A stretch of 64,000 bases of DNA from an uncultured Dysgonomonas sp. (GTDB lineage Bacteria; Bacteroidota; Bacteroidia; Bacteroidales; Dysgonomonadaceae): assembly GCF_900079725.1 (NCBI RefSeq), contig NZ_LT599032.1, forward strand, positions 2,316,253-2,380,252, given 5' to 3'. Shown here in pieces: positions 1-15,967 of this stretch (position 1 is the stretch's first letter; each line of letters starts with the position of its first letter). The notes under the pieces were generated by a model. It saw nothing but the letters and a program-made list of their open reading frames with translations. It searched no databases and was not told the DNA's origin. Both the position numbers and the translations under genes were made by a program.

Positions 1-2
1 CC

Positions 3-2897
3 CGTGACAATGCTGTACTCGTTATTTCATATGTGGGGTTCACTCCTGAAGAAATCGTGGTAGGCAATAACAAGCAGTTTTCAGTAATATTAAAAGAAAA
101 TATGACCGGGCTGGACGAAGTTATTGTTGTCGGTTACGGATCTCAGAAGAAAGCGACCCTTACCGGCTCTGTTTCACAAGTTGGAGGCGACGATTTAGTA
201 AAAGTCGCAGCAGCGAACCTTACTAACACACTTGCCGGTAAAACAGCAGGCGTTATCGCCAATGTACGTTCCGGTGAGCCGGGAGAAGACAATGCCAGTA
301 TCCTGATTAGGGGAAAAGGGACTACCGGAAATACATCCCCTCTCATTATCGTCGACGGAATCGCCGACCGTGGATTTGCACGCCTCAATCCGGAAGATAT
401 AGAATCCATATCTGTATTGAAAGATGCTTCGGCTGCTATCTACGGAGCCCGTGCGGCAAATGGTGTTATCCTGGTAACTACCAAGCGCGGAAAAGAAGGG
501 AAAATAAAAGTAAATTATAGCGGTAGCGTTTCTTTCTCTCAACCAACACGTATTCCTGAGATGCTCAATTCATATCAGTATGCTACGTATGTTAACGAAT
601 ATGACCGCCGTCATGGGCTAACCGAAACTTATTCATCCGATGCCCTCCAGAAATTACAGGACGGTTCCGACCCTATGAATTATGCAAATACCGATTGGTG
701 GGGATCCGTAGCTAAAGACTGGACTAACAGGACACAACACAGTATCGCCATCAGCGGAGGTTCGGATAAGGTATCTTTCTATACTTCGGCTCAATATATG
801 TGGCAGGATGCCATATATAAAAACAGCGCACAGGATTACGGGCAATACCAGTTCACGACAAATCTGGATGCAAAAATATCAAGTAAGATACGTTTTAGTA
901 TGGATATACGCGGACGTAAAGAATCACGTCAACGCGGGGTATATGATACAGACTATCTGTTCGGTTACTTCCTTACTACCAATCCGATGGCTGCCCCATA
1001 TTATCCTAACGGATTACCCCGTGTAGGATATGACGGAGTGACACGCAACGCGGCTGTAATGGTGACAGATGCTCCCGGAACAAATAAATACACATACAAC
1101 ATACTAAACATTAAACCTACACTGCATATCGATCTGGACATTATCACAAAAGGGCTTTATGCAGAGGGTTATGCCGCGCTGGACTATTCTTTCAATAACG
1201 GTAAAACAATAAATCACCCCTACGACCTGTTCGAATACGATCCGGCTACCGATAAATACAATAATATGAGATCGGCTACAGGAGCAATCTCCCTGAATTC
1301 GTGGGCCGACAACTCTGACAGAACAACTATAAACGCCCGTATAGGATACAAAAATACTTTCGGAGACCACAAGATAGATGCTTTTGCTGCTTACGAACAG
1401 TTTAAATATAACTACAACAATGTTTCTGCCTACAGAACCAACTATCTGTCGACAGCAATAATGGAGATATTCGCCGGAAGCGATAATCCCGAGGACATGA
1501 GTAATGGCGGATATGCAGGTGTAGACGCACGTCAAAACTTTTTCGGCCGTGTAAACTATGGTTATAAAGACAAGTATCTGGCAGAAGTGACGATGAGATA
1601 TGATGGCTCTATGAATTTCGCACCGGGCAAACGGTGGGGCTTCTTCCCTGCATTTTCGGCAGGCTGGATAATCTCGGAAGAAAGTTTCTTCGAACCTATC
1701 AAATCTACTGTAAACTTCCTTAAGCTAAAGGGTTCATGGGGTATGATGGGAAATGACAATGTAGGCGCATTCCAATTCCTTTCGCGCTACAAATTCATTG
1801 CATCCGACGATGCAGTAGAGCACAAAGCGGGCGGCGTTATGTTTGGTGATAATGTATATAAGGGATTATTCGAAGCACTGACTAAAAATCCTGATATAAC
1901 ATGGGAAACAGCCAAAACTACGAATGTCGGTTTTTCTGCCCAGTTCCTGAATGGCAAATTCAATTTGGACTTCGATTATTTCTCATCTCGCAGAAGTGAT
2001 ATTTTACGTACACGTAATGCATCCATCCCTTCATACGCAGGACTAGTACTTCCTGCCGAAAATATCGGGAAGGTTAACAATCATGGTATTGAACTCGTTG
2101 CCGGATATAAAGGTTCTTCGGGAGACTTTACATGGGATGTAACAGGCAACTTTACTTATGCCGAAAACAAAGTGAAATATGTTGACGAAGCAGCTTCCAC
2201 CCCGGCCTGGCAAAAGTGGACAGGTCACCCGATAGACGGTCTTGTTCTCTATGATGCCATAGGTATATACCAGACACAGGAAGAAATAGATAATACGCCC
2301 CATATTAAAGATGCAAAACCCGGTGACCTTATATATCGCGACACGAACGATGATGGTGAAATCACCTGGGATGATGCTATTCGCCTGAATGAATCCGCTA
2401 CACCGAAGATCATATATGGATTTACGCTGAATGGCAGCTGGAAGGGACTGGATCTGAATATCTTCTTCCAGGGACAAGCCAAAGCCAAGATACTGGTACA
2501 GCCTACAATGAATATGATGACAGACTTCTACGAAGGAAGATGGATAGAATCGAATACTGCCGAACAAAACGCTCAGGCCAAATGGCCACGGGCATTTATC
2601 AAGCAGACCTATGGTGATGATTTCAATGGAAAGTCTTCTACCTGGTGGTTACGCGATGCTGCCTTCCTACGTCTGAAATCAGTTGAATTGGGCTATTCTA
2701 TCCCTAAAAATATAATACGGAAAATCGGCCTTGAAAATGTAAGGATATATGTAAACGGAAACAACTTATTCACAATCGATAAGATCAAAATATTCGACCC
2801 GGAAATTTCCGTAAATGCAACTAATTATCAGGCTAACGGTATCACAGCTTACCCTCTGCAACGTACGATTACTACAGGCTTGAATGTTACTTTCTAA
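3..2897 (+). CDS. SusC-family TonB-dependent outer-membrane receptor, 5' end outside window
   Basis: Outer-membrane transporter that, with the SusD-like lipoprotein encoded next, imports glycan fragments using TonB energy. The frame is already open at the first in-frame codon, so the start and signal peptide lie upstream of the window. The first visible residues (ISYVGFTPEE) are the end of the carboxypeptidase-D-like domain. They are followed by a TonB-box-like LDEVIVVGYG and a plug domain with the SusC signatures IRGKGTTGN and DASAAIYGARAANGVI. The beta-barrel ends in a terminal Phe (GLNVTF), as expected for outer-membrane barrels. About 964 residues are visible against roughly 1000-1100 for the family. 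The gap to susD is 26 bases, so the two are co-transcribed. Its substrate is inferred only from the neighbouring enzymes. Confidence 0.95.
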   Translation, partial: RDNAVLVISYVGFTPEEIVVGNNKQFSVILKENMTGLDEVIVVGYGSQKKATLTGSVSQVGGDDLVKVAAANLTNTLAGKTAGVIANVRSGEPGEDNASILIRGKGTTGNTSPLIIVDGIADRGFARLNPEDIESISVLKDASAAIYGARAANGVILVTTKRGKEGKIKVNYSGSVSFSQPTRIPEMLNSYQYATYVNEYDRRHGLTETYSSDALQKLQDGSDPMNYANTDWWGSVAKDWTNRTQHSIAISGGSDKVSFYTSAQYMWQDAIYKNSAQDYGQYQFTTNLDAKISSKIRFSMDIRGRKESRQRGVYDTDYLFGYFLTTNPMAAPYYPNGLPRVGYDGVTRNAAVMVTDAPGTNKYTYNILNIKPTLHIDLDIITKGLYAEGYAALDYSFNNGKTINHPYDLFEYDPATDKYNNMRSATGAISLNSWADNSDRTTINARIGYKNTFGDHKIDAFAAYEQFKYNYNNVSAYRTNYLSTAIMEIFAGSDNPEDMSNGGYAGVDARQNFFGRVNYGYKDKYLAEVTMRYDGSMNFAPGKRWGFFPAFSAGWIISEESFFEPIKSTVNFLKLKGSWGMMGNDNVGAFQFLSRYKFIASDDAVEHKAGGVMFGDNVYKGLFEALTKNPDITWETAKTTNVGFSAQFLNGKFNLDFDYFSSRRSDILRTRNASIPSYAGLVLPAENIGKVNNHGIELVAGYKGSSGDFTWDVTGNFTYAENKVKYVDEAASTPAWQKWTGHPIDGLVLYDAIGIYQTQEEIDNTPHIKDAKPGDLIYRDTNDDGEITWDDAIRLNESATPKIIYGFTLNGSWKGLDLNIFFQGQAKAKILVQPTMNMMTDFYEGRWIESNTAEQNAQAKWPRAFIKQTYGDDFNGKSSTWWLRDAAFLRLKSVELGYSIPKNIIRKIGLENVRIYVNGNNLFTIDKIKIFDPEISVNATNYQANGITAYPLQRTITTGLNVTF

Positions 2898-2923
2898 TTC
2901 TAAAAAACTAAATCATTATCACT

Positions 2924-4618
2924 ATGAAAATGAAGAAATATATAATATACGGACTAGCTGCAGTTATCACCTGCTTCGGTACTACATCATGTGATATTCT
3001 GGATGTAGATCCTGTAGATTCGTTTACGGATGCAGCTGTATGGAACGACCTGGCGCTGGCCGAGTCCTATCTGAACTCTTCTTATACAAGGATGAAAGCC
3101 GAAGCGGAGAAAGGTTCCCGCTTTGCCAGCTTAACCGACGAGATTTATCAAATGCATACTTACGGAACAGAAAACGTACGTCAGGGTTATTTGTCCAACG
3201 ATAATTCCAGCTTCGGATGGGAGCAGGATATGTGGAATCCTTGGCATTATTACTACAGATCTATCAAAGAAGTAAACCTGTTTTTACAGAATATAGATGC
3301 AGTTCCTGCTCCTAATAACGGAGATGACAAGTGGAAAGACCAACTGAAAGGACAAGGCTATTTCCTCAGGGCATACTTCTACCATCAGCTGTATAGCATG
3401 TTTGGACGCATTCCTATCATCAAGCAAGTACATAGTCTCGATACAGAAGAATACACTGAAACAAGAGCCTCGGTAGAAGATGTTGCCGACTTCATTGCTG
3501 CCGATTGCGACGAAGCAGCCGCACTTCTCCCCGAAAAATACGCCGACGCCAACGATTATGGCAGGGCTACGAAAGGAGCTGCTCTTGCTCTGAAAGGACG
3601 CACACTTATGTTCGCAGCCAGCCCGCTGTACGACCCCAACTATCCTACAAGAGAAAAATGGGAAAGGGCAGCTAAAGCAAACAAAGACGTGATAGACCTG
3701 AATATATATTCTTTGAGTACTGTTTCTAACGCTGATGAATATGCCGCACTATTCTTTGATGCAAAGAATCCGGAAGTAATCCTTGTCAAACAGTTCGATT
3801 CGAAATGGGTAGCCGGAAACAACAGCACATTCCTGCATCAGGCTCCATGTGGAACCGGAAATGGATTTGGCGGTTGGGGAACATTGCAGCCAACTCACAA
3901 CCTGGTATCCAAATTCCAGAAGAAGGATGGCAGTGCATACACACCGGGAGCCTCGAACGTAAATCCATGGACAAACAGGGATATACGCCTCTCTGCTACT
4001 ATATTCGTGGACGGTGACAAATGGGGTTTCGGCGATGAAAACCGTACAGTAGAGTTTTTCGTAGCAGGAGAATCGGATGTCACAGCAGGCAAAGACAGCC
4101 GCGAAGGTCCAAGCTGGTGGAATGGCACACAAACAGGCTACCAACTTAAGAAATTCCTTGATCCCAGCTTCGATGCATACGGTACAACAGCAAATACAAC
4201 TCCTTGGATATACATGCGTTTGGCTGAAGTATACCTGAATTATGCCGAATGTGAAATAGAATTGGGTAATAATGCAGAAGCACTGAAATACATCAATTAT
4301 GTAAGAGAACGTGCCCTACAACCGGCAGCAAAAGGAACTAATATACGTGCAGAGTATGAATATGAGCGTCAGATAGAACTCGTATTCGAAGGGCAACGCT
4401 GGTTTGATATACGCAGATGGAAAAAAGCCGAAGATGTTTACAAAGAACCTATTCAGGGAATAAGTATAAAGATGTATAAAGATGGTTCCAAAACTTATGA
4501 AGTGAAAGCTGAACCAATAGAAACCCGTAAATTCTATGCACCGAAAAATTACTGGATGCCTATCCCACGCGATGAGTTGAGAAAAGCTCCGCAGCTGGAT
4601 GCCCAGCCTTATGAATAA
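2924..4618 (+). CDS. SusD/RagB-family surface glycan-binding lipoprotein
   Basis: 564-residue partner of the upstream SusC; SusD proteins cap the transporter on the cell surface and bind the glycan. The signal peptide ends in TTSC with the lipidated Cys at residue 23, followed by DILDVDPVD, typical of the family. The N-terminal part has the conserved region with YFLRAYFYHQLY, and the C-terminal part has YMRLAEVYLNYAE and IELVFEGQRWFDIRRWK, which are SusD hallmarks. The first ATG is chosen because the Lys-rich n-region begins there. It is followed by a strong hairpin (4627-4662) before the next gene, so expression of SusC/SusD may exceed that of the enzymes downstream. Confidence 0.95.
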   Translation: MKMKKYIIYGLAAVITCFGTTSCDILDVDPVDSFTDAAVWNDLALAESYLNSSYTRMKAEAEKGSRFASLTDEIYQMHTYGTENVRQGYLSNDNSSFGWEQDMWNPWHYYYRSIKEVNLFLQNIDAVPAPNNGDDKWKDQLKGQGYFLRAYFYHQLYSMFGRIPIIKQVHSLDTEEYTETRASVEDVADFIAADCDEAAALLPEKYADANDYGRATKGAALALKGRTLMFAASPLYDPNYPTREKWERAAKANKDVIDLNIYSLSTVSNADEYAALFFDAKNPEVILVKQFDSKWVAGNNSTFLHQAPCGTGNGFGGWGTLQPTHNLVSKFQKKDGSAYTPGASNVNPWTNRDIRLSATIFVDGDKWGFGDENRTVEFFVAGESDVTAGKDSREGPSWWNGTQTGYQLKKFLDPSFDAYGTTANTTPWIYMRLAEVYLNYAECEIELGNNAEALKYINYVRERALQPAAKGTNIRAEYEYERQIELVFEGQRWFDIRRWKKAEDVYKEPIQGISIKMYKDGSKTYEVKAEPIETRKFYAPKNYWMPIPRDELRKAPQLDAQPYE

Positions 4619-4626
4619 AATAACTT

Positions 4627-4662
4627 GCAGATCCGGGTATCCTAAAATATACCCGAATCTGC
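4627..4662 (+). terminator. intercistronic hairpin after susD (possible partial terminator)
   Basis: Arms GCAGATCCGGGTAT and ATACCCGAATCTGC pair over 14 positions with a single mismatch, with an 8-base loop. There is no long T-run directly behind it, so it may act as a 3' stabiliser or processing signal instead of a full terminator. The next gene of the same PUL starts 45 bases downstream. Confidence 0.55.
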
Positions 4663-4707
4663 ATTAAACAACAACTCTTTATTTATTGAAACAAATAAAA
4701 AGAAAAT

Positions 4708-6117
4708 ATGAAAATCAAGGAACTATTGATCATTCTTCTTCTAACCCCACTAATGCCCCTGTCGGCTTGCGGAGACTCTAATACTCCCGAGATAGAGGCC
4801 CCCGATCCGGGAGGCAAAGAAGATCCGGATCCAGATGACTCAAAGGAGATTTATTACCCTTCTTCAGTATGGAATGTGGCTGAAAACAACAATTATCAGA
4901 GTGAAAGCAGCCAATTCAGTATTCACAGGATGAGTAAAACGCCTAATCTGGTTGCTTTTTGGGAAAAGGGCTTCGGAAATGACCCATCTTCTACTAGTGA
5001 TACGAAATTCCGCTTTCCGCTCAAAGATATGATGGAAGAAAGCGACAAAATGTTTATATTCTTTCGCGATAAATTAAAATTTGTAGAGAAAGGGAAATCT
5101 CTCACCGACAAATACAAAATGACATTATATATCTACTATAATGAAGATGGAACAGTATATGGAGGAGGTGCCGACAATAAAATCGGAGTTATGTGGTTAT
5201 CACCGGGCAGAGTAAAAACCAAACCTTACGGCGCCATGGCGCACGAAATGGGGCATGCATTCCAGTATATGGTATCAGTTGATGGAGGATGGGGATATTC
5301 GAGCAGTCCTGCTGGAAGCAGAGGCCAGGCTATCTTTGAAATGACTTCACAGTATATGTTATGGCAATATTACCCAGACTGGATAACATTTGAGAACTAC
5401 CATCTTGAAACATTCATGACCAATACACACAAAGCATTCCTGCACGAAGACAACCGATATTGTTCGCCGTTTGTTCTCGAATATTGGGCAGATAAGCACG
5501 GAGTCGACTTCATAGGGAAGCTATGGCGCGAATCGAAGCAGGGAGAAGACCCTGTAATGACCTATAAGCGCTTAACAGAAATCGATCAAGAGAAATTTAA
5601 TGACGAGATACTCGATGCCGGACGCAAATTTATAACCTGGGATATGGAACGGGTAAAGGAAGCCTCTGCTGCTTATATAAATAAACATACATCAGCTTTC
5701 ACCTCTGTAGGGAACGGCTGGTATCAGATCGCCGAAAAAAGATGTCCGCAAAACTATGGATACAACGGTGTTCAGCTCGAAGTACCAACCGCAGGCACAG
5801 AAGTTGTTTTGGACTTTAAGGGTGTCGCCGGAGCTTCCGGGTTCAGAGATGTAAATAAAGATAAGGCGGGTTGGAGATATGGATTTGTTGCATTGAAAGA
5901 AAATGGAGAACGCGTTTATGGAGATGTATACTCCAAAGCAACAGGACAAGCTAAATTTATAGTTCCGGAAAAAACAACTCACTTATGGTTAGTTGTAACG
6001 GGAGCCCCTACTCAACACTGGGAGCATATATGGGATGAGAATACAGGAAATGATGAGCAATGGCCATATCAAATAAAACTGACAGGAACCACTCTTCATA
6101 GTTCTGTACAGAAATAA
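4708..6117 (+). CDS. PUL-encoded lipoprotein with HEMGH zinc-metallopeptidase motif
   Basis: 469 residues. A lipoprotein signal peptide ends in LSAC (Cys21), followed by an acidic Pro/Asp-rich linker (residues 22-47), a composition seen in surface-exposed Bacteroidota lipoproteins. The middle part carries AMAHEMGHAFQYM, with HExxH at residues 179-183, and downstream acidic/aromatic segments (IFEMTSQYMLWQYY) that could supply the third zinc ligand. The fold resembles a gluzincin; from memory it resembles proteins annotated as DUF6055, which I could not check. The last ~130 residues look like a beta-sandwich module. Its position between SusD and a GH127 suggests a role at the surface on a glycoprotein or on a glycan attached to protein. 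It could be a peptidase, or a catalytically unrelated family that keeps the motif. The HExxH and lipobox are seen; the peptidase activity is inferred. Confidence 0.75.
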   Translation: MKIKELLIILLLTPLMPLSACGDSNTPEIEAPDPGGKEDPDPDDSKEIYYPSSVWNVAENNNYQSESSQFSIHRMSKTPNLVAFWEKGFGNDPSSTSDTKFRFPLKDMMEESDKMFIFFRDKLKFVEKGKSLTDKYKMTLYIYYNEDGTVYGGGADNKIGVMWLSPGRVKTKPYGAMAHEMGHAFQYMVSVDGGWGYSSSPAGSRGQAIFEMTSQYMLWQYYPDWITFENYHLETFMTNTHKAFLHEDNRYCSPFVLEYWADKHGVDFIGKLWRESKQGEDPVMTYKRLTEIDQEKFNDEILDAGRKFITWDMERVKEASAAYINKHTSAFTSVGNGWYQIAEKRCPQNYGYNGVQLEVPTAGTEVVLDFKGVAGASGFRDVNKDKAGWRYGFVALKENGERVYGDVYSKATGQAKFIVPEKTTHLWLVVTGAPTQHWEHIWDENTGNDEQWPYQIKLTGTTLHSSVQK

Positions 6118-6146
6118 TAATTAATTGATTAGTAAAAGGTAAAATA

Positions 6147-8618
6147 ATGATAAGGAAAATAAAGAATTTTTTATTATGTACAGCCATTCTAATAACGAGT
6201 GGATGTAATACTCTTCAGGAGGAACCTTCAGGAGTAAAACTGGGCGAAATTAAAGAAGTCCCGTTCACTGATGTTCACTTTACGGACGAATTTTGGTTAC
6301 CACGAATGGAAATCAACAGGACTGTATCCATTCCATCTGCTTTTCACCAATGCGAGATCAATGGAAGGTTCGATAATTTTGCGCTGGCAGGGGGATTAAT
6401 CAAAGGCGAACATAAGGGAGATTTCTCTTTCGACGACACTGACCCTTACAAAATTATAGAAGGAGCATCTTATTCTCTCGCTGTAAAATACGACCCTAAA
6501 CTCGATGCATACCTCGATAGTGTAATCACCTTGATTGCAGCAGCACAGGAACCGGACGGCTATCTTACGACCTGCGTCACGAATAAATGTACGCGTCTTT
6601 CGGGCTGGTGGGGCAGCTCGCGCTGGGAGAAAATAAACAGTCACGAATTATATAACAGTGGCCATCTCTATGAAGCAGCCGTTGCTCATTATCAGGCTAC
6701 ACAAAAGAGGACATTACTGGATGTAGCGATCAAAAATGCCAACCTCGTGTGCCAGGTGTTCGGCCCCAACGAAGGGCAGAAACATGTGCCATCCGGCCAT
6801 CCGATCGTAGAAATGGCATTAGTAAAACTATACAATGTAACCAACGATAAGAAGTATCTGGATATGGCTCGTTACTTTGTTGACGAAACCGGACGTGGTA
6901 CCGACGGGCACAGGCTCAGTCCTTACAGCCAAGACCACATGCCGATACTCAAGCAAGACGAAATAGTAGGACATGCCGTTCGTGCAGGTTATCTCTATTC
7001 GGGAGTTACCGATGTAGCATCTATGCAGCACGACCACAATCTTTTCGAAGCTGTAGACCGTGTATGGGATAATATGGCAAGCAAAAAGCTATATATCATC
7101 GGCGGTATTGGTTCTCGGGCACAAGGTGAAGGCTTCGGACCAAACTATGAGCTGAACAATTTTAATAACTATTGCGAAACGTGTGCATCTATAGCCAATG
7201 TTTACTGGAATCAGCGCATGTTCCTTGCCACAGGAGAATCCAAATACGTAGATGTGCTGGAGAGAGCACTTTACAACGGGCTTATAGCCGGAGTTTCCCT
7301 GAGCGGGGATAAATTCTTCTATGGAAACCCGCTGGCGTCGGATGGTGGTTTCGAACGTGCACCATGGTTCGGTTGCGCATGCTGCCCGGGAAATGTTACC
7401 CGCTTTATGGCTTCCGTTCCGGGATATGCATATGCTGTAAACAAAAAAGATATCTATGTAAACTTATTTGTTGAAGGAAATTCTAAAGTAAAACTTGATA
7501 ACAACGAAGTAGAATTGGTTCAAAAGACTAAATATCCGTGGGACGGGGATGTAAGTATAGAAGTTGTGCCTTCAGTATCTGAAAAGTTTGCTGTGCTTAT
7601 CCGTATTCCCGGCTGGGCAAAAAACAAACCTGTACCTTCCGACTTATATCATTATGTAGACGGAGCAACTCCTGATGTAAAGATATTGGTAAACGGACAA
7701 GATGCTAAAAAGAAAATCAGAGGTGGATATGCCGTTGTAGAGCGTGAATGGAAGGCCGGAGATAAAATCTCGGTACACATGGATATGCCAGTGAGAAGAG
7801 TACAGGCACATAAAGAAGTGAAATATGACGAAGGCCTTTTATCTATGGAGCGTGGCCCTATTGTTTATGCCCTGGAAAGTATAGACCAAAAGAAAGATTA
7901 TTTATTTGATGTGGTGATTCCACGCGATTCGAAAATAGAATCACATTTCGAAAAGAGCCTGCTGAACGGAGTAATGGTACTGGAAGGAAACGCCTATTCG
8001 GTAGAAACGGATTCTGTAAATGGCAAAACTGTAGAGAAACCGTTTACATTCAAAGCCATTCCTTATAGCACATGGAACAATCGCGGACAAGGCCAACTTG
8101 TGGTATGGACTCCCGAAACTTCAGAATATGCTATTCCGAAACCAGAACCAACCCTTGCGTCTCAGGCTTGGCCGGTGGACGGATGGGGCTTCAACGACCA
8201 GTTCGAACCAAAATCTTCGGCAGACATCAATACACCATATCATTATTGGTGGCTAAAGGCGGGAACCGAAGAATCTATCGGATATAAATTCAAAACACCG
8301 GAAAAGATATCCAGTTGCGAAGTTTACTGGCTGGCATTCGAGCACTACGATGTAATCTACAAAGCACCCGAATCGTGGAAGCTATTATACAAAGATGGCA
8401 ATTCGTGGAAAGAAGTAAAAAATGCATCTTCATACGGTACAGAACTGGATAAATACAATAAAGTAACATTCGATCCGGTAACTACAACCGAACTGAAAAT
8501 GGTAGTACAACTACAAAGACCTAAGGCAGAAAAAGCATCTGACGAAAACGGCCCTCAGGTCGTAGATGTTGGCCGCAGAGGTTATTCAGGCGGAGTTATA
8601 GAATGGAAGGTTTACTAA
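6147..8618 (+). CDS. GH127 beta-L-arabinofuranosidase-type lipoprotein (first copy)
   Basis: 823 residues. GH127 enzymes remove beta-L-arabinofuranose using a zinc-bound cysteine nucleophile. The family metal site is visible: NYCETCASIANVYW gives Glu344 and Cys346, and WFGCACCPGNVTRF gives Cys410, Cys412 and Cys413, matching the Glu/Cys/Cys/Cys ligand set known for HypBA1. The N-terminus has a lipobox (ITSGC). The alpha/alpha-barrel covers roughly residues 35-430, followed by beta-sandwich domains. A C-terminal part (about 690-823) looks like a discoidin-type module (KLLYKDGNSWKEV). It lies 29 bases after the HEMGH gene and is followed by a hairpin at 8628-8667. A second GH127 lies at 13532. 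Family assignment is firm; specificity within GH127 is not proven. Confidence 0.92.
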   Translation: MIRKIKNFLLCTAILITSGCNTLQEEPSGVKLGEIKEVPFTDVHFTDEFWLPRMEINRTVSIPSAFHQCEINGRFDNFALAGGLIKGEHKGDFSFDDTDPYKIIEGASYSLAVKYDPKLDAYLDSVITLIAAAQEPDGYLTTCVTNKCTRLSGWWGSSRWEKINSHELYNSGHLYEAAVAHYQATQKRTLLDVAIKNANLVCQVFGPNEGQKHVPSGHPIVEMALVKLYNVTNDKKYLDMARYFVDETGRGTDGHRLSPYSQDHMPILKQDEIVGHAVRAGYLYSGVTDVASMQHDHNLFEAVDRVWDNMASKKLYIIGGIGSRAQGEGFGPNYELNNFNNYCETCASIANVYWNQRMFLATGESKYVDVLERALYNGLIAGVSLSGDKFFYGNPLASDGGFERAPWFGCACCPGNVTRFMASVPGYAYAVNKKDIYVNLFVEGNSKVKLDNNEVELVQKTKYPWDGDVSIEVVPSVSEKFAVLIRIPGWAKNKPVPSDLYHYVDGATPDVKILVNGQDAKKKIRGGYAVVEREWKAGDKISVHMDMPVRRVQAHKEVKYDEGLLSMERGPIVYALESIDQKKDYLFDVVIPRDSKIESHFEKSLLNGVMVLEGNAYSVETDSVNGKTVEKPFTFKAIPYSTWNNRGQGQLVVWTPETSEYAIPKPEPTLASQAWPVDGWGFNDQFEPKSSADINTPYHYWWLKAGTEESIGYKFKTPEKISSCEVYWLAFEHYDVIYKAPESWKLLYKDGNSWKEVKNASSYGTELDKYNKVTFDPVTTTELKMVVQLQRPKAEKASDENGPQVVDVGRRGYSGGVIEWKVY

Positions 8619-8627
8619 ACTAAATGT

Positions 8628-8667: not shown

Positions 8668-8688
8668 TATTAAATAAAAACAGATAAT

Positions 8689-11421
8689 ATGAGAATAAAT
8701 AGGATTTATATTTTACTTTTCTGTCTTATCCTTATTTTGACAAAATCGGAAAATGTATTAGGGAATAAAAAGATTACAGCGAAATCCCCTGATAACAAGA
8801 TAGAACTAAATATCTCTTTAGATAAAGACGTTAGTTACTCCATATGGCATATGGGACAAAAAGTTTTGGATGATTCTAAAATCGCGCTTATCCTTTCCGA
8901 GAATAATATATTGGGAAATGAGCCTAAACTCTTATCGAAGAAAGAAAAGGTATTTCATGAAAATATAACATCACCTTTTTATCGCACTCAATCATTTTCT
9001 GTTGACTATAGAGAGATCAACCTCAAATTTAAAGGAGAATACGGCATCATATTCCGCATCTATAACGAAGGGGTAGCCTATCGTTTCTACACAACACAAA
9101 ATAAAGAAATAGAAATACAGAACGAGATTGCAGAATTTAATTTCGATAAAGATTACAAAACTTATCTCGCCCATACTACAAATAAGAAAGAGCCGTTCGC
9201 GATGGCTTTTCAAAATACATACGAAGTAAAAACATTATCCGCAGCCGATACCAGTTTGGTATTCCTACCTGCAACAATAGATCTGGGAAACAGCAAGAAA
9301 CTGACAATATTAGAATCTGATCTGGAGACATATCCGGGAATGTTTATCCATTCGTCAAAAGGAGAAAATAGCCTCAAAGGCATATTCGCTCCATATCCTA
9401 AAAGCGTAGATTATAACGCGTGGAGGCATCAGGAATATATCACCGAACGAAGTTCTGTTATCGCTAAAACGAAAGGAAACAGAAGCTATCCTTGGCGAAT
9501 ATTAGCTATTACAGAAAAAGACATAGACATGCCTCTCAACAATCTGGTATATGCCTTGGCCTCCCCAAACAGAACGGGTGATTATTCATGGGTAAAACCC
9601 GGAAAATCGGCATGGGAATGGTGGAACGACTGGGGACTCTACAATGTAGATTTTAAGGCGGGAATCAATATGGAGACATATAAACATTATATAAATTTCG
9701 CCTCAAAATTCGGACTTCAATATATAATACTCGATGAGGGATGGTACGACCCCAAAAAGGGGGATATGATGACAACGATACCTGAAATAGACCTCCCTGA
9801 ACTTGTATCTTATGCAAAAAATAAAAATGTAGGGATTATATTGTGGACTGTCTTCAATGTTCTCGATACACAATTGGAAGAAGCTTGTAAACATTATTCC
9901 GAACTGGGAATCAAAGGTTTCAAAATAGATTTTCTTGACCGCGACGATCAGAAAGCAGTGGAGATGACTTATCGCATAGCTGAAGCAGCCGCACGTCACA
10001 AATTGATTTTGGACTTGCATGGATATTATAAGCCGACGGGTATAAACAGAACATATCCTAACATTATTAATTTCGAGGGAGTATTCGGGATGGAAGAAGC
10101 GAAATGGAGTACGTTGGAAAAAGACATGCCCCTATATGACGTTACCTTCCCTTTTATTCGTATGATGGCAGGTCCTGTCGACTTTACGTCGGGAGCTATG
10201 CGCAATGCGTCAAAAAAAGACTTTCAGCCGATCTATTACAATCCGATGAGTCAAGGAACTCGCTGCCATCAGTTAGCCACCTATATCGTTTACGACTCTC
10301 CACTAACAATGTTGTGCGACTCTCCCACCCTTTACGAAAAAGAAGAGGAATACACGCACTTTATTTCATCCATGCCTGTAAATGTAGATGAAACAAAAAT
10401 ATTATCCGGCGAAATAGGAGAATACATCGTTACAGCCCGCAGAAAAGGTAACAATTGGTACATCGGAGGACTTACCAACTGGACTGCAAGAGATTTACAG
10501 ATCGATTTGTCTTTCCTGAAAGAAGGAAAAAAATATAAAGCAATAATCTATAAAGACGGAGCAAACGCGGAGAAACAAGCGGCCGATTATATACATAAAA
10601 ATGCAAATTTAGATACAAACACCCAACTTATGTTGCATTTGGCTTCAGGCGGAGGTTTTGCTATAAGTCTCGAAGAAGAGACAGACTTTAATGTAAAACC
10701 TACGGCTGTTCCGCCAACCTTAGGTCTCGATGCATTCTATAAAAAATATGTGGATGCGGATGGGATTCCCATAGTATCATCGGATAAGGTAAATGACGTG
10801 GCACTCAATAGAGCCGCAAAAGTAATCTCGCAAGTATTATCTAAGCGGGAAGATGTAAAGAAAGCGATGATAACCAAAGGCTGTAAAGTAATGATAATCG
10901 GGGAGAAAGAAGAAGTATGCGAGCTTCCTGAATATAAGCATATCTGCGACACTCCCGAAAATACAGCATACTGGAACAAGCGAGCGCGCGGTTTTGGCGG
11001 TGCACCCGAACACGATTTCAGTGCCAGTTGCGGCGAAGAAAATGTAATTTGCCTGCCGGGCGACAGATATAAAGGGGAAAGTATACTTGTACACGAATTT
11101 GCACATATTATCCATATGGTCGGTATTCTGGGAGTTAATCCGGATTTCGACAACGAACTGGAAGCCTTACGTTTGAAAGCTATCGAAAAAGGCTTATGGA
11201 AAGGGACGTATGCCATCAGTAACAAAGAAGAGTATTTTGCAGAAACAGTACAATCATTCTTCGACTGCAACAAATATTCTGCCGAACCGAATGGCGTTCA
11301 TAATGCTATCAATACAAGAGTGAAACTCAAAGAATACGACCCTGATATGTACAATCTGCTGTTACAATATTTCCCTGAAATAGAGCTGGACTTATGTCCT
11401 GATAACAGAACTAATCAATAA
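8689..11421 (+). CDS. GH97 glycosidase (retaining, alpha-galactosidase type) fused to C-terminal HEFAH zincin-like domain
   Basis: 910 residues, about 230 longer than ordinary GH97 enzymes. A signal peptide (hydrophobic to about residue 25) directs it to the periplasm or beyond. Residues ~30-650 are GH97: N-terminal beta-sandwich, a barrel with KSAWEWWNDWG, and GFKIDFLDRDDQ with Asp414. NFEGVFGMEEAKWS contributes Glu469. The 55-residue spacing equals that of the nucleophile/acid-base pair of the retaining alpha-galactosidase BtGH97b, not of inverting SusB. Some GH97 enzymes also act on beta-L-arabinopyranosides. Residues ~690-910 form an extra domain with ILVHEFAHIIHM (HExxH 802-806) and, 45 residues later, EEYFAETVQSFF with Glu852, the layout of a gluzincin peptidase. 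The next gene starts 4 bases after the stop. The domain fusion is seen; peptidase activity is inferred. Confidence 0.9.
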   Translation: MRINRIYILLFCLILILTKSENVLGNKKITAKSPDNKIELNISLDKDVSYSIWHMGQKVLDDSKIALILSENNILGNEPKLLSKKEKVFHENITSPFYRTQSFSVDYREINLKFKGEYGIIFRIYNEGVAYRFYTTQNKEIEIQNEIAEFNFDKDYKTYLAHTTNKKEPFAMAFQNTYEVKTLSAADTSLVFLPATIDLGNSKKLTILESDLETYPGMFIHSSKGENSLKGIFAPYPKSVDYNAWRHQEYITERSSVIAKTKGNRSYPWRILAITEKDIDMPLNNLVYALASPNRTGDYSWVKPGKSAWEWWNDWGLYNVDFKAGINMETYKHYINFASKFGLQYIILDEGWYDPKKGDMMTTIPEIDLPELVSYAKNKNVGIILWTVFNVLDTQLEEACKHYSELGIKGFKIDFLDRDDQKAVEMTYRIAEAAARHKLILDLHGYYKPTGINRTYPNIINFEGVFGMEEAKWSTLEKDMPLYDVTFPFIRMMAGPVDFTSGAMRNASKKDFQPIYYNPMSQGTRCHQLATYIVYDSPLTMLCDSPTLYEKEEEYTHFISSMPVNVDETKILSGEIGEYIVTARRKGNNWYIGGLTNWTARDLQIDLSFLKEGKKYKAIIYKDGANAEKQAADYIHKNANLDTNTQLMLHLASGGGFAISLEEETDFNVKPTAVPPTLGLDAFYKKYVDADGIPIVSSDKVNDVALNRAAKVISQVLSKREDVKKAMITKGCKVMIIGEKEEVCELPEYKHICDTPENTAYWNKRARGFGGAPEHDFSASCGEENVICLPGDRYKGESILVHEFAHIIHMVGILGVNPDFDNELEALRLKAIEKGLWKGTYAISNKEEYFAETVQSFFDCNKYSAEPNGVHNAINTRVKLKEYDPDMYNLLLQYFPEIELDLCPDNRTNQ

Positions 11422-11425
11422 CGAC

Positions 11426-13510
11426 ATGAAGAAAAGTATATATCTCATATTATTTATACTGCTTTTCGATACATTACACGGACAGGAGATAAAATATAAT
11501 ACCCCCGGCGCGGGAAACCCGATTATTCCGAGCTATTTCGCCGACCCTACCGTTCGAAAATTCGGAGATACATATTATATTTATACCACGACAGATGGTA
11601 CAGGCTTGGGTGTAGGTCCAGCACAGGTATGGAAATCGAAGGATTTTGTGAATTGGACAATAGAACCGATGAACTGGCCGACAGCCAATCAGATATGGGC
11701 GCCGGATGTGATGCAGGGAACCGATGGCCGATATTACCACTATTACAGTCAAGCTTGTAAAATATTCTGTGGAGTATCGGACAATCCGACAGGCCCGTGG
11801 ACTAATATACTCGGCCCGGATGAAGCAGTGCTTATACCCGACCGTTATGTGAAAATGTCCATTACCCTCGATGCACAAAGCTTTATCGACGATGACGGTT
11901 CTACTTACCTCTATTGGGGTACATGGGGCATTTATAAAGACCACGGTTGTGGTGTCGGCAAACTGAGCGCTGATATGAAAAGCCTTGTTGATACCACACT
12001 GATACCGAACACACAGGCCACCGATTTTTTCGAAGCGCCGTATGTATTCAAACGTAATGGCATTTATTACCTGACTTATTCATCGGGCTCTTGCCACGAC
12101 CATACTTACCGCGTGCAATATGCGACCAGCAAAACAGGCCCGATGGGTCCTTTCGAATTTGCAGACAACAACCCTATACTGGCTACAAGTGCCGACAGCA
12201 CTATTCACGGGCCGGGGCATCACAGTATATTGAAGGAGGGTGACGATTATTATATCGTTTATCACAGGCACAATATTCCACAATCGACCCGGGGCTTTTT
12301 CAGGCAGGTGGCAGCCGATAAACTGGAATTCGATAAAGACGGACGGATATTGAAAGTAAATGCCGGACATAAGGGGATCGGGTTCTTACAGAAAAATTCT
12401 AATCCGTATAAGAATATAGCGTTCGGAGCAAAAGTAAAAGCATCATCTCACTATGATGAAAATTTCAAACCTGAATATGCTATAGATGATAACAACGCCA
12501 CATTATGGAGAGCCAAGAGCTGTTACAATGATGAATGGATAGAATTGGATTTAGGCAAAGTACAGAATATAAAACGTATCTGGACGCAATTCGAACATGC
12601 TACTTCATTCTATCAGTATCTTTATGAGACATCTGTGGATGGTAAGAACTGGACGGTTTTTTCTGACAAGCGCAATAATATACTTGCCGGAAGTCCGATG
12701 ATAAATCGCAATGATATAAAAGCAAGATATATCCGATTAACAGTTACAGGAAATGAGAAAAACGGGCTATTCCCTGCCGTATGGAATATCAAGGTATTTT
12801 CAGCAGGAGAAGACCCATTCCCTGTCAACAGCCAACCTTTCGATAAGCAGGCAAAGACCGCTACTCCGAAAAGGCAAGGATTGCTCTTCGAAATCAATGC
12901 CAAAAGTTATCCTACAGGTTCTCTCGTTACCAGAATATTAAATGAGCAAAATAGGAAAGAAGGATTCGACGCTTTCTCAATGGCCATTCCTGTCGAAAGC
13001 TATAAGAATAAAGCAGCATTTGCTTTCAATGGATACCAGCAATTCAGGTCTGATTTCGGATTGCCCGAAACTATGACAGGCAATGCACCTTACAGCATTT
13101 CAGCATGGATAGCATCCGAAAACCCGAAAGAAAACGAATGTATACTCGATATCAACGAATCGTATGGCGAACTGGAGAAAATAATCTTCGGGTATGGAAG
13201 CAGTCCCCGCAGCGGAATCACCATGCATCACGGCTGGTACGAAGATATGGGAATCAAAGATATTAGAACCGACGGGGACTGGAAACATATAGTTGTTACC
13301 TTCGATGGATATAAGGAAAAAATATATATTAACGGTATATTTGTAAAAGAAAAGGATATTTTTCTGCGTGTAGGAAAAAGCGAAAAAATTACTTTAGGTA
13401 CTAAATTTGATGGAGAACATCGTTTCACCGGATACCTCAACTCTCTCAGATTCTATGATACACCATTGACACAGAATGAAATATCGGAACTTTATAATCA
13501 AGGAAAATAA
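11426..13510 (+). CDS. GH43-family glycosidase with discoidin (F5/8C) and LamG-like modules
   Basis: 694 residues with a signal peptide (MKKSIYLILFILLFDTLHGQ). The five-bladed propeller of GH43 spans about residues 30-330, and its three catalytic acids are visible: base Asp40 in YFADPTV, pKa-modulating Asp149 in ITLDAQSF, and acid Glu203 in FFEAPYVF. Residues ~335-465 form a discoidin/F5-8C-type module (WIELDLGKVQNIKRIW), and ~480-694 a concanavalin/LamG-like module (YSISAWIASENPK, RFTGYLNSLRFYD). GH43 enzymes mostly remove alpha-L-arabinofuranose, beta-xylose or galactofuranose; I cannot choose a subfamily from sequence alone, but the GH127 neighbours favour an arabinose-containing target. 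It starts 4 bases after the GH97 gene and ends 21 bases before the next GH127, so it lies within the same operon. Confidence 0.9.
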   Translation: MKKSIYLILFILLFDTLHGQEIKYNTPGAGNPIIPSYFADPTVRKFGDTYYIYTTTDGTGLGVGPAQVWKSKDFVNWTIEPMNWPTANQIWAPDVMQGTDGRYYHYYSQACKIFCGVSDNPTGPWTNILGPDEAVLIPDRYVKMSITLDAQSFIDDDGSTYLYWGTWGIYKDHGCGVGKLSADMKSLVDTTLIPNTQATDFFEAPYVFKRNGIYYLTYSSGSCHDHTYRVQYATSKTGPMGPFEFADNNPILATSADSTIHGPGHHSILKEGDDYYIVYHRHNIPQSTRGFFRQVAADKLEFDKDGRILKVNAGHKGIGFLQKNSNPYKNIAFGAKVKASSHYDENFKPEYAIDDNNATLWRAKSCYNDEWIELDLGKVQNIKRIWTQFEHATSFYQYLYETSVDGKNWTVFSDKRNNILAGSPMINRNDIKARYIRLTVTGNEKNGLFPAVWNIKVFSAGEDPFPVNSQPFDKQAKTATPKRQGLLFEINAKSYPTGSLVTRILNEQNRKEGFDAFSMAIPVESYKNKAAFAFNGYQQFRSDFGLPETMTGNAPYSISAWIASENPKENECILDINESYGELEKIIFGYGSSPRSGITMHHGWYEDMGIKDIRTDGDWKHIVVTFDGYKEKIYINGIFVKEKDIFLRVGKSEKITLGTKFDGEHRFTGYLNSLRFYDTPLTQNEISELYNQGK

Positions 13511-13531
13511 TATAACAAAACAGATATAGCT

Positions 13532-15967
13532 ATGAAAAAATTAAGTTTAGTCGTTCTTTTACTCACCTGCTACTGGCTAACAGGCTGGGGATGCAACCAT
13601 CCCGGACACAACCATGTACATGAGCAGAAAGGAGACAATAAGGACTACCCTATCCAGCCGGTAGCCTTTACTTCAGTTAAATTCTCGGATAAGTTCTGGG
13701 CACCGCGTATCCGTATCAATCAGGATGTGACAATACCTATTGCTCTCGGCCATTGTTACAATACAGGACGGGTGGATAACTTCAAGAAAGCAGGAAAACT
13801 GATACCGGGCTATTTTGCGACTCAACTTACTTTCGACGATACCGATATTTATAAGATCATCGAAGGTGCGGCCTATTCCATTCAGATGTTCCCGAATAAG
13901 GAACTGGAAGCTCGCATGGATACATTGATTTATTATATACAAAAGGCACAGGAGCCTGACGGATATCTATATACAGCACGCACAGCGGGAGAACCGGGAA
14001 AACTGCACGAATGGGTAGGTGAAAAACGTTGGGAGAAAGATCCCGACCTCAGCCATGAACTATACAATTGCGGACACCTTTACGAAGCGGCAGTCGCTCA
14101 TTATCAGGCGACAGGAAAACGCACATTGCTCGATGTGGCTATCAAGAATGCCGACCTGTTGGTAAAAGACTTCGGGCCGGGTAAACTGGCTTACGAACCC
14201 GGACACCAGATCGTAGAAATGGGACTGGCAAAGATGTACCGTGTGACAGGTAAAAAAGAATATCTCGACCTTGCCAAATATTTCCTCGACCTGAAAGGAC
14301 ACGGACACAGCGGTGAGTACAGCCAGACACACAAGCCTGTTATCGAACAGGATGAAGCCGTAGGGCATGCCGTGCGTGCTGCCTATATGTACTCGGGGAT
14401 GGCTGATGTGGCTGCTCTGACAGGAAACGAAGCCTATCTGCATGCCATAGACAAAATTTGGGACAATGTGGTTACTAAAAAACTGTATATCACAGGAGGT
14501 ATAGGGGCGACAGGGCATGGCGAGGCTTTCGGCAAGAATTATGAACTACCGAATATGTCGGCTTATTGCGAAACTTGTGCTGCTATCGCCAATGTGTACT
14601 GGAATCACAGATTATTCCTGCTTCACGGCGATTCGAAATATTATGATGTACTGGAACGTACTTTATATAATGGTTTGATTTCGGGTATAAACCTTGATGG
14701 TAACCGATTCTTCTATCCTAACCCGCTGGAGTCGGTGGGGCAACACGGACGCAGCGAATGGTTCGGCTGTGCATGCTGTCCGAGCAATGTATGCCGCTTT
14801 ATGCCGTCGATACCAGGATATGTATATGCTAAGAAAGATGATAAGATATATGTGAGCCTTTTTGTAGAAAGCGAAGGTGAAATAGAATTGGGTAAGAATA
14901 AAATCAATCTGTCACAGAAAACAGGCTATCCGTGGGATGGAAATGTTATTATCAATGTAGACCCTGCCAAATCGGAAAAATTCGATGTACTGGTAAGAAT
15001 ACCGGGATGGGCATTGAATAAACCTGTACCAAGTGATCTTTATACTTACCTTAATCCGAAAAAGGAAACTGTAAAGATAAAAGTAAATGGCAAGGATGTA
15101 GATTATACAATAGGGAGTAATGGTTATGTAACCCTTTCTCAGAAATGGAAAAAGGGAGATAAAATAGATGTATCGTTCCCTATGGATGTTCATAAAGACG
15201 TTGCAAACGAAAAGGTGGAAGACGACAAGGGAAAAGTAGCTATTGAGCGTGGCCCTATTGTATATTGCCTGGAATGGGTAGACAATAAAGACCGTGTGCT
15301 GAACGCCGTACTCGAGGACAATGTAACATTCTCCGAAACCTTCTTGTCCGACAAATTGAGTGGTATCCTGCAACTGGAAGCAAATGCCAAAAGTGCATCG
15401 AGAGACAAGGACAATAATGTGCTGGTAGAGGATAAACAACTGACTGCAATACCGTATTATGCATGGTCGAACCGCGGAGCGGGCGAAATGGCTGTATGGA
15501 TTCCGCGTACTGTAGAATCGACACGCCCATTGCCACCTCCTACTTTCTGTACGAATGCGAAAGTATCATCCTCGTCTCCTAACAAATCGATGAGCAGTGT
15601 AAACGACGGTTACTGGCCAAAAGATTCGAATGACAGGCATGTACCGTTCTTTACCTTGTGGCCGAAAAATAATTCGCAGGAATGGATTGTTTACGATTTC
15701 GACAAGCCTGAAACATTTTCTACTGCGTCGGTATTCTGGTACGATGATGGGCCTTGGGGAGGCTGCCGTATCCCTTTGTCGTGGGGTGTACAATACAAGG
15801 ATGATAAGGGTGAATGGGTGGATGTAAAAGCCAAAACTCCGGCTAAACCGGAAAAGAATGCCTTGAATGCAATCGAATTTGAACCTGTTACAAGTCAAAG
15901 TGTTCGCTTATTGTTTCAGCTACCTGTGCAAGAATCGGTAGGAGTATATGAGTTTGAAGTGAAATAG
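13532..15967 (+). CDS. GH127 beta-L-arabinofuranosidase-type lipoprotein (second copy, His-rich N-terminus)
   Basis: 811 residues, paralogous to the gene at 6147 and keeping the same metal site: YCETCAAIANVYW (Glu347, Cys349) and WFGCACCPSNVCRF (Cys413, Cys415, Cys416). The signal peptide ends at TGWGC (Cys21). The mature N-terminus after the Cys is NHPGHNHVHE, four His in nine residues, absent from the first copy. A discoidin-like module fills about residues 690-811. It is the last gene of this PUL and is followed by a good intrinsic terminator (15987-16040). Two GH127 copies in one locus suggest that different beta-L-arabinofuranosyl linkages, or chain position, are attacked. The family is certain; the division of labour is inference. 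Confidence 0.92.
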   Translation: MKKLSLVVLLLTCYWLTGWGCNHPGHNHVHEQKGDNKDYPIQPVAFTSVKFSDKFWAPRIRINQDVTIPIALGHCYNTGRVDNFKKAGKLIPGYFATQLTFDDTDIYKIIEGAAYSIQMFPNKELEARMDTLIYYIQKAQEPDGYLYTARTAGEPGKLHEWVGEKRWEKDPDLSHELYNCGHLYEAAVAHYQATGKRTLLDVAIKNADLLVKDFGPGKLAYEPGHQIVEMGLAKMYRVTGKKEYLDLAKYFLDLKGHGHSGEYSQTHKPVIEQDEAVGHAVRAAYMYSGMADVAALTGNEAYLHAIDKIWDNVVTKKLYITGGIGATGHGEAFGKNYELPNMSAYCETCAAIANVYWNHRLFLLHGDSKYYDVLERTLYNGLISGINLDGNRFFYPNPLESVGQHGRSEWFGCACCPSNVCRFMPSIPGYVYAKKDDKIYVSLFVESEGEIELGKNKINLSQKTGYPWDGNVIINVDPAKSEKFDVLVRIPGWALNKPVPSDLYTYLNPKKETVKIKVNGKDVDYTIGSNGYVTLSQKWKKGDKIDVSFPMDVHKDVANEKVEDDKGKVAIERGPIVYCLEWVDNKDRVLNAVLEDNVTFSETFLSDKLSGILQLEANAKSASRDKDNNVLVEDKQLTAIPYYAWSNRGAGEMAVWIPRTVESTRPLPPPTFCTNAKVSSSSPNKSMSSVNDGYWPKDSNDRHVPFFTLWPKNNSQEWIVYDFDKPETFSTASVFWYDDGPWGGCRIPLSWGVQYKDDKGEWVDVKAKTPAKPEKNALNAIEFEPVTSQSVRLLFQLPVQESVGVYEFEVK

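What the first reader, a model, noticed from the sequence alone, without database searches (positions are those of the whole stretch)
3..15967. PUL with enzymes and peptidase domains suited to hydroxyproline-rich glycoproteins (extensin-like)
Seen: SusC/SusD, two GH127 with intact Cys/Glu metal sites, a GH97 with the retaining-type Asp414/Glu469 pair, a GH43, and two separate HExxH domains. Known: extensins carry beta-L-arabinofuranosyl chains on hydroxyproline and alpha-galactose on serine; GH127 removes beta-L-Araf and retaining GH97 includes alpha-galactosidases. Inference: the locus may strip and then cut a glycosylated plant protein, a combined saccharide-and-peptide utilisation system, not a simple arabinan locus.
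Basis: partly seen in the sequence, partly recalled or inferred. Interest (0 to 1): 0.75.

Follow-up and report, generated by a model that had tools for sequence, protein, structure and literature searches.

The report
Likely extensin-digesting bacterial gene cluster
A bacterium carries a gene cluster that looks built to take apart extensin, a tough sugar-coated plant cell wall protein, by removing its sugars and cutting its proline-rich backbone; this is predicted from sequence and not yet tested.

Summary
In detail: SusC/SusD, a DUF6055 protein with HExxH, two GH127, a retaining-type GH97 with a C-terminal HExxH domain, and a GH43 form one run at 3-15967. A regulator, a GH27 and a surface lipoprotein lie just upstream, an S9 peptidase downstream. 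Three lines support the glycoprotein reading. (1) DUF6055 is related to Svx, shown in 2026 to cleave carrot extensin (PMC13164431). (2) The best fold matches of the GH97-fused HExxH domain are Pro-Pro endopeptidase PPEP-3; Trp, Tyr and Glu at PPEP spacing are invariant in 34 of 34 copies. Extensin has runs of contiguous Hyp. (3) In relatives GH127 lies beside DUF6055 in 16 of 24 SusC-containing loci, against 1 of 58 SusD genes in this genome, and the PPEP-like domain is fused to GH97, GH43 or S9. I read it as a PUL for arabinosylated Hyp-rich plant glycoprotein, most likely extensin. Substrate and activities are inferred. Arabinogalactan protein is the main rival: the nearest solved GH127, recalled as BT3674, acts there.

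The parts
1..2897 (+). SusC-type TonB-linked outer membrane transporter (its start lies 274 bases upstream of the window)
   Evidence: TIGR04056 894.5 bits against cut-off 368; upstream start at L005:19480
2924..4618 (+). SusD-type glycan-binding lipoprotein
   Evidence: PF07980, PF14322
4708..6117 (+). DUF6055 gluzincin-type peptidase, Svx-related; probable lipoprotein with an acidic stretch after the Cys (by eye); HEMGH at residues 179-183, second Glu at 211
   Evidence: PF19527 520 bits; NF040510 Svx/AvrXca 71.8 bits, below cut-off 625; H179, E180, H183, E211 invariant in the 43 aligned sequences, window included
6147..8618 (+). GH127 beta-L-arabinofuranosidase (first copy)
   Evidence: PF07944; best solved relative 6ex6, E 5.5e-197; E344, C346, C412, C413
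8689..10671 (+). GH97 retaining alpha-galactosidase module (residues 1-661)
   Evidence: NF053844 885.6 bits, cut-off 800; best solved 3a24 and 5e1q
10672..11418 (+). PPEP-like HExxH metallopeptidase domain fused to GH97 (residues 662-910)
   Evidence: AlphaFold2 pLDDT 82 from six sequences; top four Foldseek hits PPEP-3; W, Y and E of the motif invariant in 34 of 34 copies
11426..13510 (+). GH43 with F5/8-type C and laminin-G-like domains; proposed alpha-1,3-L-arabinofuranosidase
   Evidence: PF04616, PF00754, PF13385; best solved 5msx, E 9.4e-58
13532..15967 (+). GH127 beta-L-arabinofuranosidase (second copy) with C-terminal F5/8-type C domain
   Evidence: PF07944; best solved 6ex6, E 3.7e-243; E347, C349, C415, C416
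16354..18657 (+). S9 peptidase with DPP IV-type propeller, nucleophile motif GASAG; probable last member of the locus
   Evidence: PF00930, PF00326; S9 in 9 of 39 and 10 of 80 DUF6055 loci; fused to the PPEP-like domain in L056

Best explanation
This is a polysaccharide-utilization-type locus that takes apart an arabinosylated, proline/hydroxyproline-rich plant glycoprotein, most likely extensin (or a lectin with extensin-like domains). Proposed working: the SusD-like and upstream surface lipoproteins hold the glycoprotein. DUF6055, at the surface, cuts the backbone at glycosylated sites as its relative Svx does. The fragments enter through SusC. GH43 takes the terminal alpha-1,3-Araf, the two GH127 take the beta-1,2-Araf and Hyp-linked beta-Araf, and GH97 and GH27 take alpha-Gal from Ser. 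The PPEP-like domain tied to GH97 then cuts the bared Pro/Hyp runs and S9 trims the peptides. The upstream hybrid two-component sensor switches the locus on. Shown here: gene content, catalytic residues present, family membership, recurrent co-location and fusions. Inferred: every activity, the surface or periplasmic places, the order of steps and the substrate.
For: Families and catalytic residues. All 43 aligned DUF6055 sequences match the Svx profile and keep HExxH and the second Glu. Svx cleaves carrot extensin but not porcine mucin or concanavalin A (PMC13164431, abstract and passages). PPEP-like domain: the four PDB fold hits with E under 0.001 are all PPEP-3, E 9.8e-6 to 4.8e-5, probability 1.00, TM 0.49-0.54 by query and 0.57-0.63 by target; weak Pfam ATLF matches in 6 of 13 members, best 1.4e-5; W101, Y180 and E187 invariant in 34 of 34 distinct copies (copies were picked by their HExxH-type motif, so H141, E142, H145 are fixed by the picking there, but they are also invariant in the 13 and 6 sequences). 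Tyr-to-Glu spacing is 7 and S-loop-aromatic-to-His spacing 40, as in PPEP-3 (residue numbers from PMC12828418). Extensin carries Ser-Hyp(n) with oligoarabinosides on Hyp and Gal on Ser (PMC4769139; PMC6085000). Co-location: GH127 in 16 of 24 DUF6055 loci that hold SusC, window included, against 1 of 58 SusD genes of this genome, the one being this locus. Profile of PPEP-like domain and DUF6055 over 392 genomes: both 11, first only 7, second only 11, neither 363, Fisher p 2.5e-11. Fusions of the PPEP-like domain to GH97 (six loci, window included), GH43 (one) and S9 (one). Of the ten genes from regulator to S9 none is an enzyme typical of arabinogalactan, RG-II or arabinan backbones.
Against: No activity, growth or expression datum. 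The window's DUF6055 (469 aa) matches the Svx profile only up to position 445 of 601, so it seems to lack the C-terminal acyltransferase-like domain that Svx needs for extensin. Its AlphaFold2 model (pLDDT 89) drew no gluzincin among the 50 listed PDB fold hits. The closest solved GH127 is, as I recall, BT3674, an arabinogalactan enzyme, and a LacZ-type GH2 lies next to the locus. PPEP-like domain: fold hits have rmsd 4.3-6.3 A and 14-16% identity; no sequence match to a PPEP in the PDB; the window's Pfam ATLF score is under the cut-off and all 13 members also match M90 weakly; [quoted passage not shown] spacing from second His to Tyr is 35, not 33 as in PPEP-3; no basic residue stands two before the S-loop aromatic. 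In 4 of the 11 genomes with both, the PPEP-like domain lies on another contig or elsewhere than DUF6055. In 6 of the 7 genomes with the domain but without a strong DUF6055, no GH127 hit lies near it in the stretches fetched. No GH121 in the genome. S9 lacks the Tyr after the catalytic Ser that DPP IV has (recalled), so Pro specificity is open.
Confidence: 0.63

Rival explanations
1. The locus serves arabinogalactan protein (AGP) or its side chains: GH127 and GH43 trim beta- and alpha-Araf, GH97/GH27 trim alpha-Gal caps of the gum-arabic type, and the peptidases act on the AGP core.
For: [quoted passage not shown] BT_3675 (GH43_34) acts on alpha-1,3-Araf of gum arabic AGP (PMC8939339, passages). 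6ex6, the best solved relative of both GH127, is BT3674 by recall. A LacZ-type GH2 beta-galactosidase lies beside the locus.
Against: No galactanase, glucuronidase or rhamnosidase family among the ten genes of the locus. In relatives that hold DUF6055 and GH127 most ORFs fall into the same few clusters; of 8 leftover ORFs scanned none is such an enzyme, the others were not scanned. A Pro-Pro endopeptidase fits contiguous Pro/Hyp, the extensin pattern; AGP Hyp is largely non-contiguous (recalled). Docking of Svx disfavoured beta-linked glycans such as those of AGP (PMC9266454; PMC10815107).
Confidence: 0.17
2. A pectic or arabinan polysaccharide locus: the GHs act on RG-I/RG-II or arabinan side chains, and the HExxH parts are non-proteolytic or general nutrient peptidases that happen to sit there.
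For: Aceric acid hydrolase (RG-II) is the top NCBIfam name for both GH127, though far below its cut-off (472 and 483 of 950 bits). BT_3662 acts on RG-II alpha-1,3-Araf (PMC8939339).
Against: No RG-II or arabinan enzyme set in the locus. Two metallopeptidase types with conserved active sites recur with GH127 in differing SusC/SusD contexts. Fusion of a peptidase domain to three different enzymes of the locus argues for a joint substrate.
Confidence: 0.12
3. The fused HExxH domain is an M90/MtfA-like regulatory or housekeeping peptidase, not a Pro-Pro endopeptidase, and only DUF6055 acts on the substrate.
For: All 13 domain members match Pfam M90 weakly, best E 4e-4. In several genomes the domain is solitary, away from PUL genes.
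Against: No M90 structure is named among the 50 PDB fold hits listed, while PPEP-3 fills the top four places. The Tyr, the third Zn Glu and the S-loop aromatic of PPEP are invariant at PPEP spacing. Standalone copies seem to carry signal peptides (by eye). The domain is fused to GH97, GH43 and S9.
Confidence: 0.25

Closest known systems
Hyp-linked beta-L-arabinooligosaccharide system of Bifidobacterium longum and Xanthomonas (HypAA GH43, HypBA2 GH121, HypBA1 GH127/GH146)
   Same: Same bond set: alpha-1,3-Araf by GH43, beta-Araf by GH127, on Hyp-rich glycoprotein (PMC6085000, passages).
   Different: No GH121 here; SusC/SusD import in place of the ABC transporter of B. longum (PMC7263609, abstract in listing); peptidases and alpha-galactosidases are built into the locus.
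Svx/AvrXca extensin peptidases of plant-pathogenic bacteria
   Same: Related peptidase region with HExxH and a second Glu.
   Different: Far below the Svx curated cut-off; no acyltransferase-like domain seen; sits in a nutrient-uptake locus.
Pro-Pro endopeptidases (PPEP-1 to PPEP-4)
   Same: Closest fold; HExxH, Tyr, Glu and S-loop aromatic at largely matching spacing.
   Different: No significant sequence match in the PDB; Bacteroidota; fused to glycosidases or S9; conserved Arg-rich stretch after the aromatic.
Bacteroides thetaiotaomicron arabinogalactan PUL BT3674-87
   Same: Relatives of GH127 (probably BT3674) and GH43_34.
   Different: No galactanases in this locus; peptidases and alpha-galactosidases instead.
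Mucin O-glycopeptidase (M60) loci of Bacteroides
   Same: Principle of peptidase plus glycosidases for one glycoprotein (PMC13355702 and PMC11992087, search listing only).
   Different: Other peptidase families; here plant-type glycosidases.

Membership tests
Sus-type polysaccharide utilization locus | Adjacent SusC and SusD genes with regulator and exported glycosidases | tested here: met
   (export judged by eye)
GH127 beta-L-arabinofuranosidase | PF07944 catalytic domain with Cys3-Glu zinc site and Cys nucleophile | tested here: met
GH127 beta-L-arabinofuranosidase | Activity on Hyp-linked or beta-1,2 Araf | not testable with these tools
   No assay possible
GH97 retaining alpha-galactosidase | NCBIfam NF053844 score over curated cut-off; Asp nucleophile | tested here: met
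   885.6 against 800 bits; D414
Svx/AvrXca peptidase | HExxH plus second Glu (gluzincin motif) | tested here: met
   HEXXH-X27-E in the window (positions); invariant in 43 aligned sequences, window included
Svx/AvrXca peptidase | NCBIfam NF040510 score over curated cut-off | tested here: not met
   71.8 against 625 bits: a relative, not a Svx
Svx/AvrXca peptidase | C-terminal acyltransferase-like domain needed for extensin | tested here: not met
   Best match stretch ends at 445 of 601 profile positions and the protein at 469 aa
Pro-Pro endopeptidase (PPEP) | PPEP fold | tested here: met
   Top four Foldseek hits, probability 1.00, TM by target 0.57-0.63, rmsd 4.3-6.3 A; VIA-align not available
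Pro-Pro endopeptidase (PPEP) | HExxH, oxyanion Tyr, third Zn Glu, S-loop aromatic in order and at similar spacing | tested here: met
   34 of 34 copies for W, Y, E; HExxH; PPEP residue numbers from PMC12828418; His-to-Tyr spacing is 35 against 33
Pro-Pro endopeptidase (PPEP) | Basic residue two before the S-loop aromatic, touching the Glu tandem | tested here: not met
   Ala at 99 of the domain; Arg104 and Arg106 lie on the other side
Pro-Pro endopeptidase (PPEP) | Sequence family membership (Pfam ATLF over cut-off or PDB sequence match) | tested here: not met
   20.8 against 27.4 bits; no PPEP or 68
Pro-Pro endopeptidase (PPEP) | Cleaves between two prolines | not testable with these tools
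   Needs a peptide library
Hyp-arabinooligosaccharide system (HypAA/HypBA1/HypBA2) | GH121 beta-L-arabinobiosidase | tested here: not met
   Only an accessory-domain match of 24.6 bits in the genome, cut-off 3200
Hyp-arabinooligosaccharide system (HypAA/HypBA1/HypBA2) | alpha-1,3-specific GH43 | tested here: inconclusive
   GH43 present; subfamily not assigned

The most novel reading that the evidence does not exclude
A widespread, undescribed class of Bacteroidota loci digests extensin with a glycosidase-tethered Pro-Pro (Hyp-Hyp) endopeptidase: in this protein one GH97 active site frees Ser from alpha-galactose while the fused PPEP-type site cuts the neighbouring Hyp run, next to a Svx-related surface peptidase. 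These would be, as far as I recall, the first PPEP-type enzymes outside Firmicutes and the first with a nutritional role.
Probability: 0.42. Interest if true: 0.85.

Novelty: new variant of a known kind. Interest (0 to 1): 0.7.

Why it matters
Extensin is a structural glycoprotein of plant walls. In the papers my searches listed its breakdown is described by enzyme sets of Bifidobacterium and Xanthomonas, by peptidases of plant pathogens, or by genome prediction in Latescibacteria; I saw no Bacteroidota locus for it. A dedicated locus would explain how Hyp-rich plant protein is broken down by these bacteria, would give DUF6055 and the unnamed PPEP-like family a function, and would make a substrate for recurring unknowns of the same loci (DUF5695, CotH-type, DUF4859) testable.

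Tried and rejected
GH121 was sought in the whole genome and not found. Sequence searches of the PPEP-like domain against the PDB gave no usable match (the best hit, E 0.37, is a toxin chain of the same wider family and was not pursued). The DUF6055 fold search was uninformative for the peptidase part. VIA-align was not available. I considered GH2 (18848-22438, minus strand) as part of the locus and left it out: it lies on the other strand, and GH2 recurs in 3 of the loci clustered (one of them without DUF6055) and 5 of 80. Loci where the PPEP-like domain stands without DUF6055 were examined and are reported as they stand; one of these genomes, G423, has a sub-threshold DUF6055 fragment at a contig end (26.7 bits). 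The two locus sets overlap in some genomes (for example L071 and L149, L083 and L104), so their counts must not be added. Of the DUF6055 matches I took 40 stretches, not every one; many stretches are cut by contig ends. Rows dropped before counts: for the Fisher test I used only matches over 100 bits (22 of 55 DUF6055 genomes, 18 of 21 PPEP-like genomes). In one search two L061 fragments without the motif were dropped and one duplicate merged (35 to 34). SusD rows of one gene were merged (60 to 58 in G000, 70 to 69 in G053). For G053 only the 10 GH127 places listed of its 14 were used (8 of 69 SusD near one, one of these its own DUF6055 locus).
Full report
WHAT IS THERE. The window lies at 2316253-2380252 of a single 5.22 Mb contig. 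Upstream DNA (L005) completes the locus: a hybrid two-component regulator on the minus strand (L005:12177-16268), a GH27 alpha-galactosidase (L005:16497-17738), a lipoprotein with BT_3987-like domains (L005:17775-19433), then SusC. Downstream, after 386 bases, comes an S9 peptidase (16354-18657). DUF6055 and the GH97-fused HExxH domain are each found once in the genome; PF07944 (GH127 and kin) four times. TatC is 97 and 90% identical to two same-genus genomes and 71% to Parabacteroides goldsteinii, the nearest of the five named genomes compared.

THE ENZYMES. Both GH127 keep the Glu and three Cys of the zinc-cysteine site and are closest to 6ex6 among solved structures, which I recall as BT3674. 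GH97 passes the curated cut-off for retaining alpha-galactosidase. GH43 is nearest to 5msx, recalled as BT_3662; BT_3675 and BT_3662 are given as GH43_34 enzymes on alpha-1,3-Araf (PMC8939339, passages). Together these would match the four bonds of Hyp-Ara4 (Araf-alpha1,3-Araf-beta1,2-Araf-beta1,2-Araf-beta-Hyp; PMC6085000, passages) plus Ser-alpha-Gal.

THE FIRST PEPTIDASE. DUF6055 matches NCBIfam's Svx/AvrXca model in 43 of 43 aligned sequences, the window's copy far below the cut-off. H179, E180, H183 and E211 are invariant in the 43. Svx is a gluzincin (PMC9266454, passages). In 2026 it was shown to cleave carrot extensin and not porcine mucin or concanavalin A, and to need a C-terminal acyltransferase-like domain that its authors, from docking, think reads the arabinosyl chains (PMC13164431, abstract and passages). 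The window protein seems to lack that domain. Its model (pLDDT 89) gave only weak beta-sandwich and unrelated hits in the 50 listed, so the peptidase fold is not independently confirmed.

THE SECOND PEPTIDASE. The C-terminal 249 residues of the GH97 protein were modelled from six sequences (pLDDT 82). The four PDB matches with E under 0.001 are all PPEP-3, the Pro-Pro endopeptidase of Geobacillus, with rmsd 4.3-6.3 A and 14-16% identity. PPEP-3 uses His153, Glu154, His157, Tyr190, Glu197 and S-loop Tyr113 (Trp103 in PPEP-1; PMC12828418, passages). The domain has H141, E142, H145, Y180, E187 and W101. W101, Y180 and E187 are invariant in 34 of 34 distinct copies picked by an HExxH-type motif; all six are invariant in the 13 and 6 sequences. 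Tyr to Glu is 7 residues in both, S-loop aromatic to first His 40 in both; second His to Tyr is 35 here and 33 in PPEP-3. Sequence support is weak: Pfam ATLF matches 6 of 13 members (best 1.4e-5), M90 matches 13 of 13 (best 4e-4), neither over cut-off in the window copy. I therefore call it PPEP-like, not a PPEP.

RELATIVES. DUF6055 occurs in 12 of 101 genomes of the family and, over the cut-off, in 25 of 392 of an order sample. I fetched 40 stretches. Of 39 loci with DUF6055, counting the window's, 24 hold SusC, 19 GH127, 15 GH43, 12 the PPEP-like domain and 9 S9 (the window's own S9 lies beyond the stretch used). GH127 lies in 16 of the 24 with SusC. In the window's own genome only 1 of 58 SusD genes, this one, lies within 10 kb of a GH127 (15 of 23 against 0 of 57 without the window, Fisher p 7.4e-11); in a related genome 8 of 69. 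These loci share ancestry in part, so the p-value overstates independence; but their SusC are mostly only 22-36% identical to the window's, one 77%. A named set of 80 loci gave GH127 in 28, GH97 in 19, GH43 in 18, S9 in 10, PPEP-like in 5 and GH27 in 4; by their names it includes plant-associated species and Bacteroides. Over 392 genomes the PPEP-like domain and DUF6055 co-occur in 11, against 7 and 11 alone (p 2.5e-11; 2.8e-10 without the window's genome). In 7 of those 11 (G000, G195, G243, G291, G431, G445, G475) the two lie within about 16 kb; in the other four they lie on other contigs or elsewhere. Of the seven genomes with the domain and no strong DUF6055, one (G423) has GH127 beside it in the stretch fetched, six do not.

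FUSIONS. In two same-genus genomes (L054, L059) the PPEP-like protein is a separate gene, apparently with its own signal peptide, between the GH127 and GH43 genes where the window has the GH97 fusion; the GH127 and the GH43 catalytic part there are 88-96% identical to the window's. Elsewhere the domain is fused to GH97 (window, L071, L154, L155, L207, L213), to GH43 (L206) or to S9 (L056) (L207 is cut by its contig). Fusion of one domain to three different enzymes of the locus argues for a shared substrate. In L054 and L059 SusC, SusD and DUF6055 are of another type (DUF6055 35-37% identical) while the enzymes are conserved, so the recognition part seems to be swapped and the enzyme part kept.

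JUDGEMENT. The sugar enzymes alone fit extensin, AGP and parts of pectin. The two peptidases tip the balance: one has a relative shown to cut extensin; the other resembles an enzyme that cuts between prolines, and contiguous Pro/Hyp is the extensin pattern. I put extensin-type glycoprotein at 0.63 and AGP at 0.17. Predicting extensin use from GH127 in a genome has been done before (Latescibacteria, PMC4454575, passages). A Bacteroidota locus joining GH127, alpha-galactosidase, a Svx relative and a PPEP-like domain was not found in my paper searches, which cover open-licence PMC only and of which I saw the listed results.

Noticed in passing
window 23154-31287 (-): Urocanase and formiminotransferase domains; the neighbouring ORFs look like histidine ammonia-lyase and imidazolonepropionase by eye, so probably a histidine utilisation operon.
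   Followed up: partly
window 31477-46418: A second PUL: a regulator with Y_Y_Y and LuxR-type domains, SusC/SusD, a DUF5125-like protein and GH16, GH30, GH3, suited to a beta-glucan.
   Followed up: no
window 18848-22438 (-): LacZ-type GH2 with an N-terminal ricin-type lectin domain between the locus and the histidine genes.
   Followed up: no
L053, L055, L056, L057, L058, L062, L087, L132, L133, L135, L138: A DUF5695 protein, mostly about 900 aa, recurs in DUF6055 loci (7 of 39, 4 of 80; identified); a candidate new enzyme for the same substrate.
   Followed up: partly
L063-L067, L076, L079: CotH-type protein (PF08757) near DUF6055 in 7 of 39 loci, together with a DUF4859 protein.
   Followed up: no
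L055:15938-17660; L067, L069, L070, L076, L079: Tandem PPEP-like genes (L055) and two DUF6055 genes in one locus elsewhere: duplicated peptidases within one PUL.
   Followed up: no
L116, L124, L126, L129, L131, L172: DUF6055 also in bins labelled Planctomycetota, Sedimentisphaerales, Verrucomicrobia and Fibrobacter, so the peptidase is not confined to Bacteroidota.
   Followed up: no
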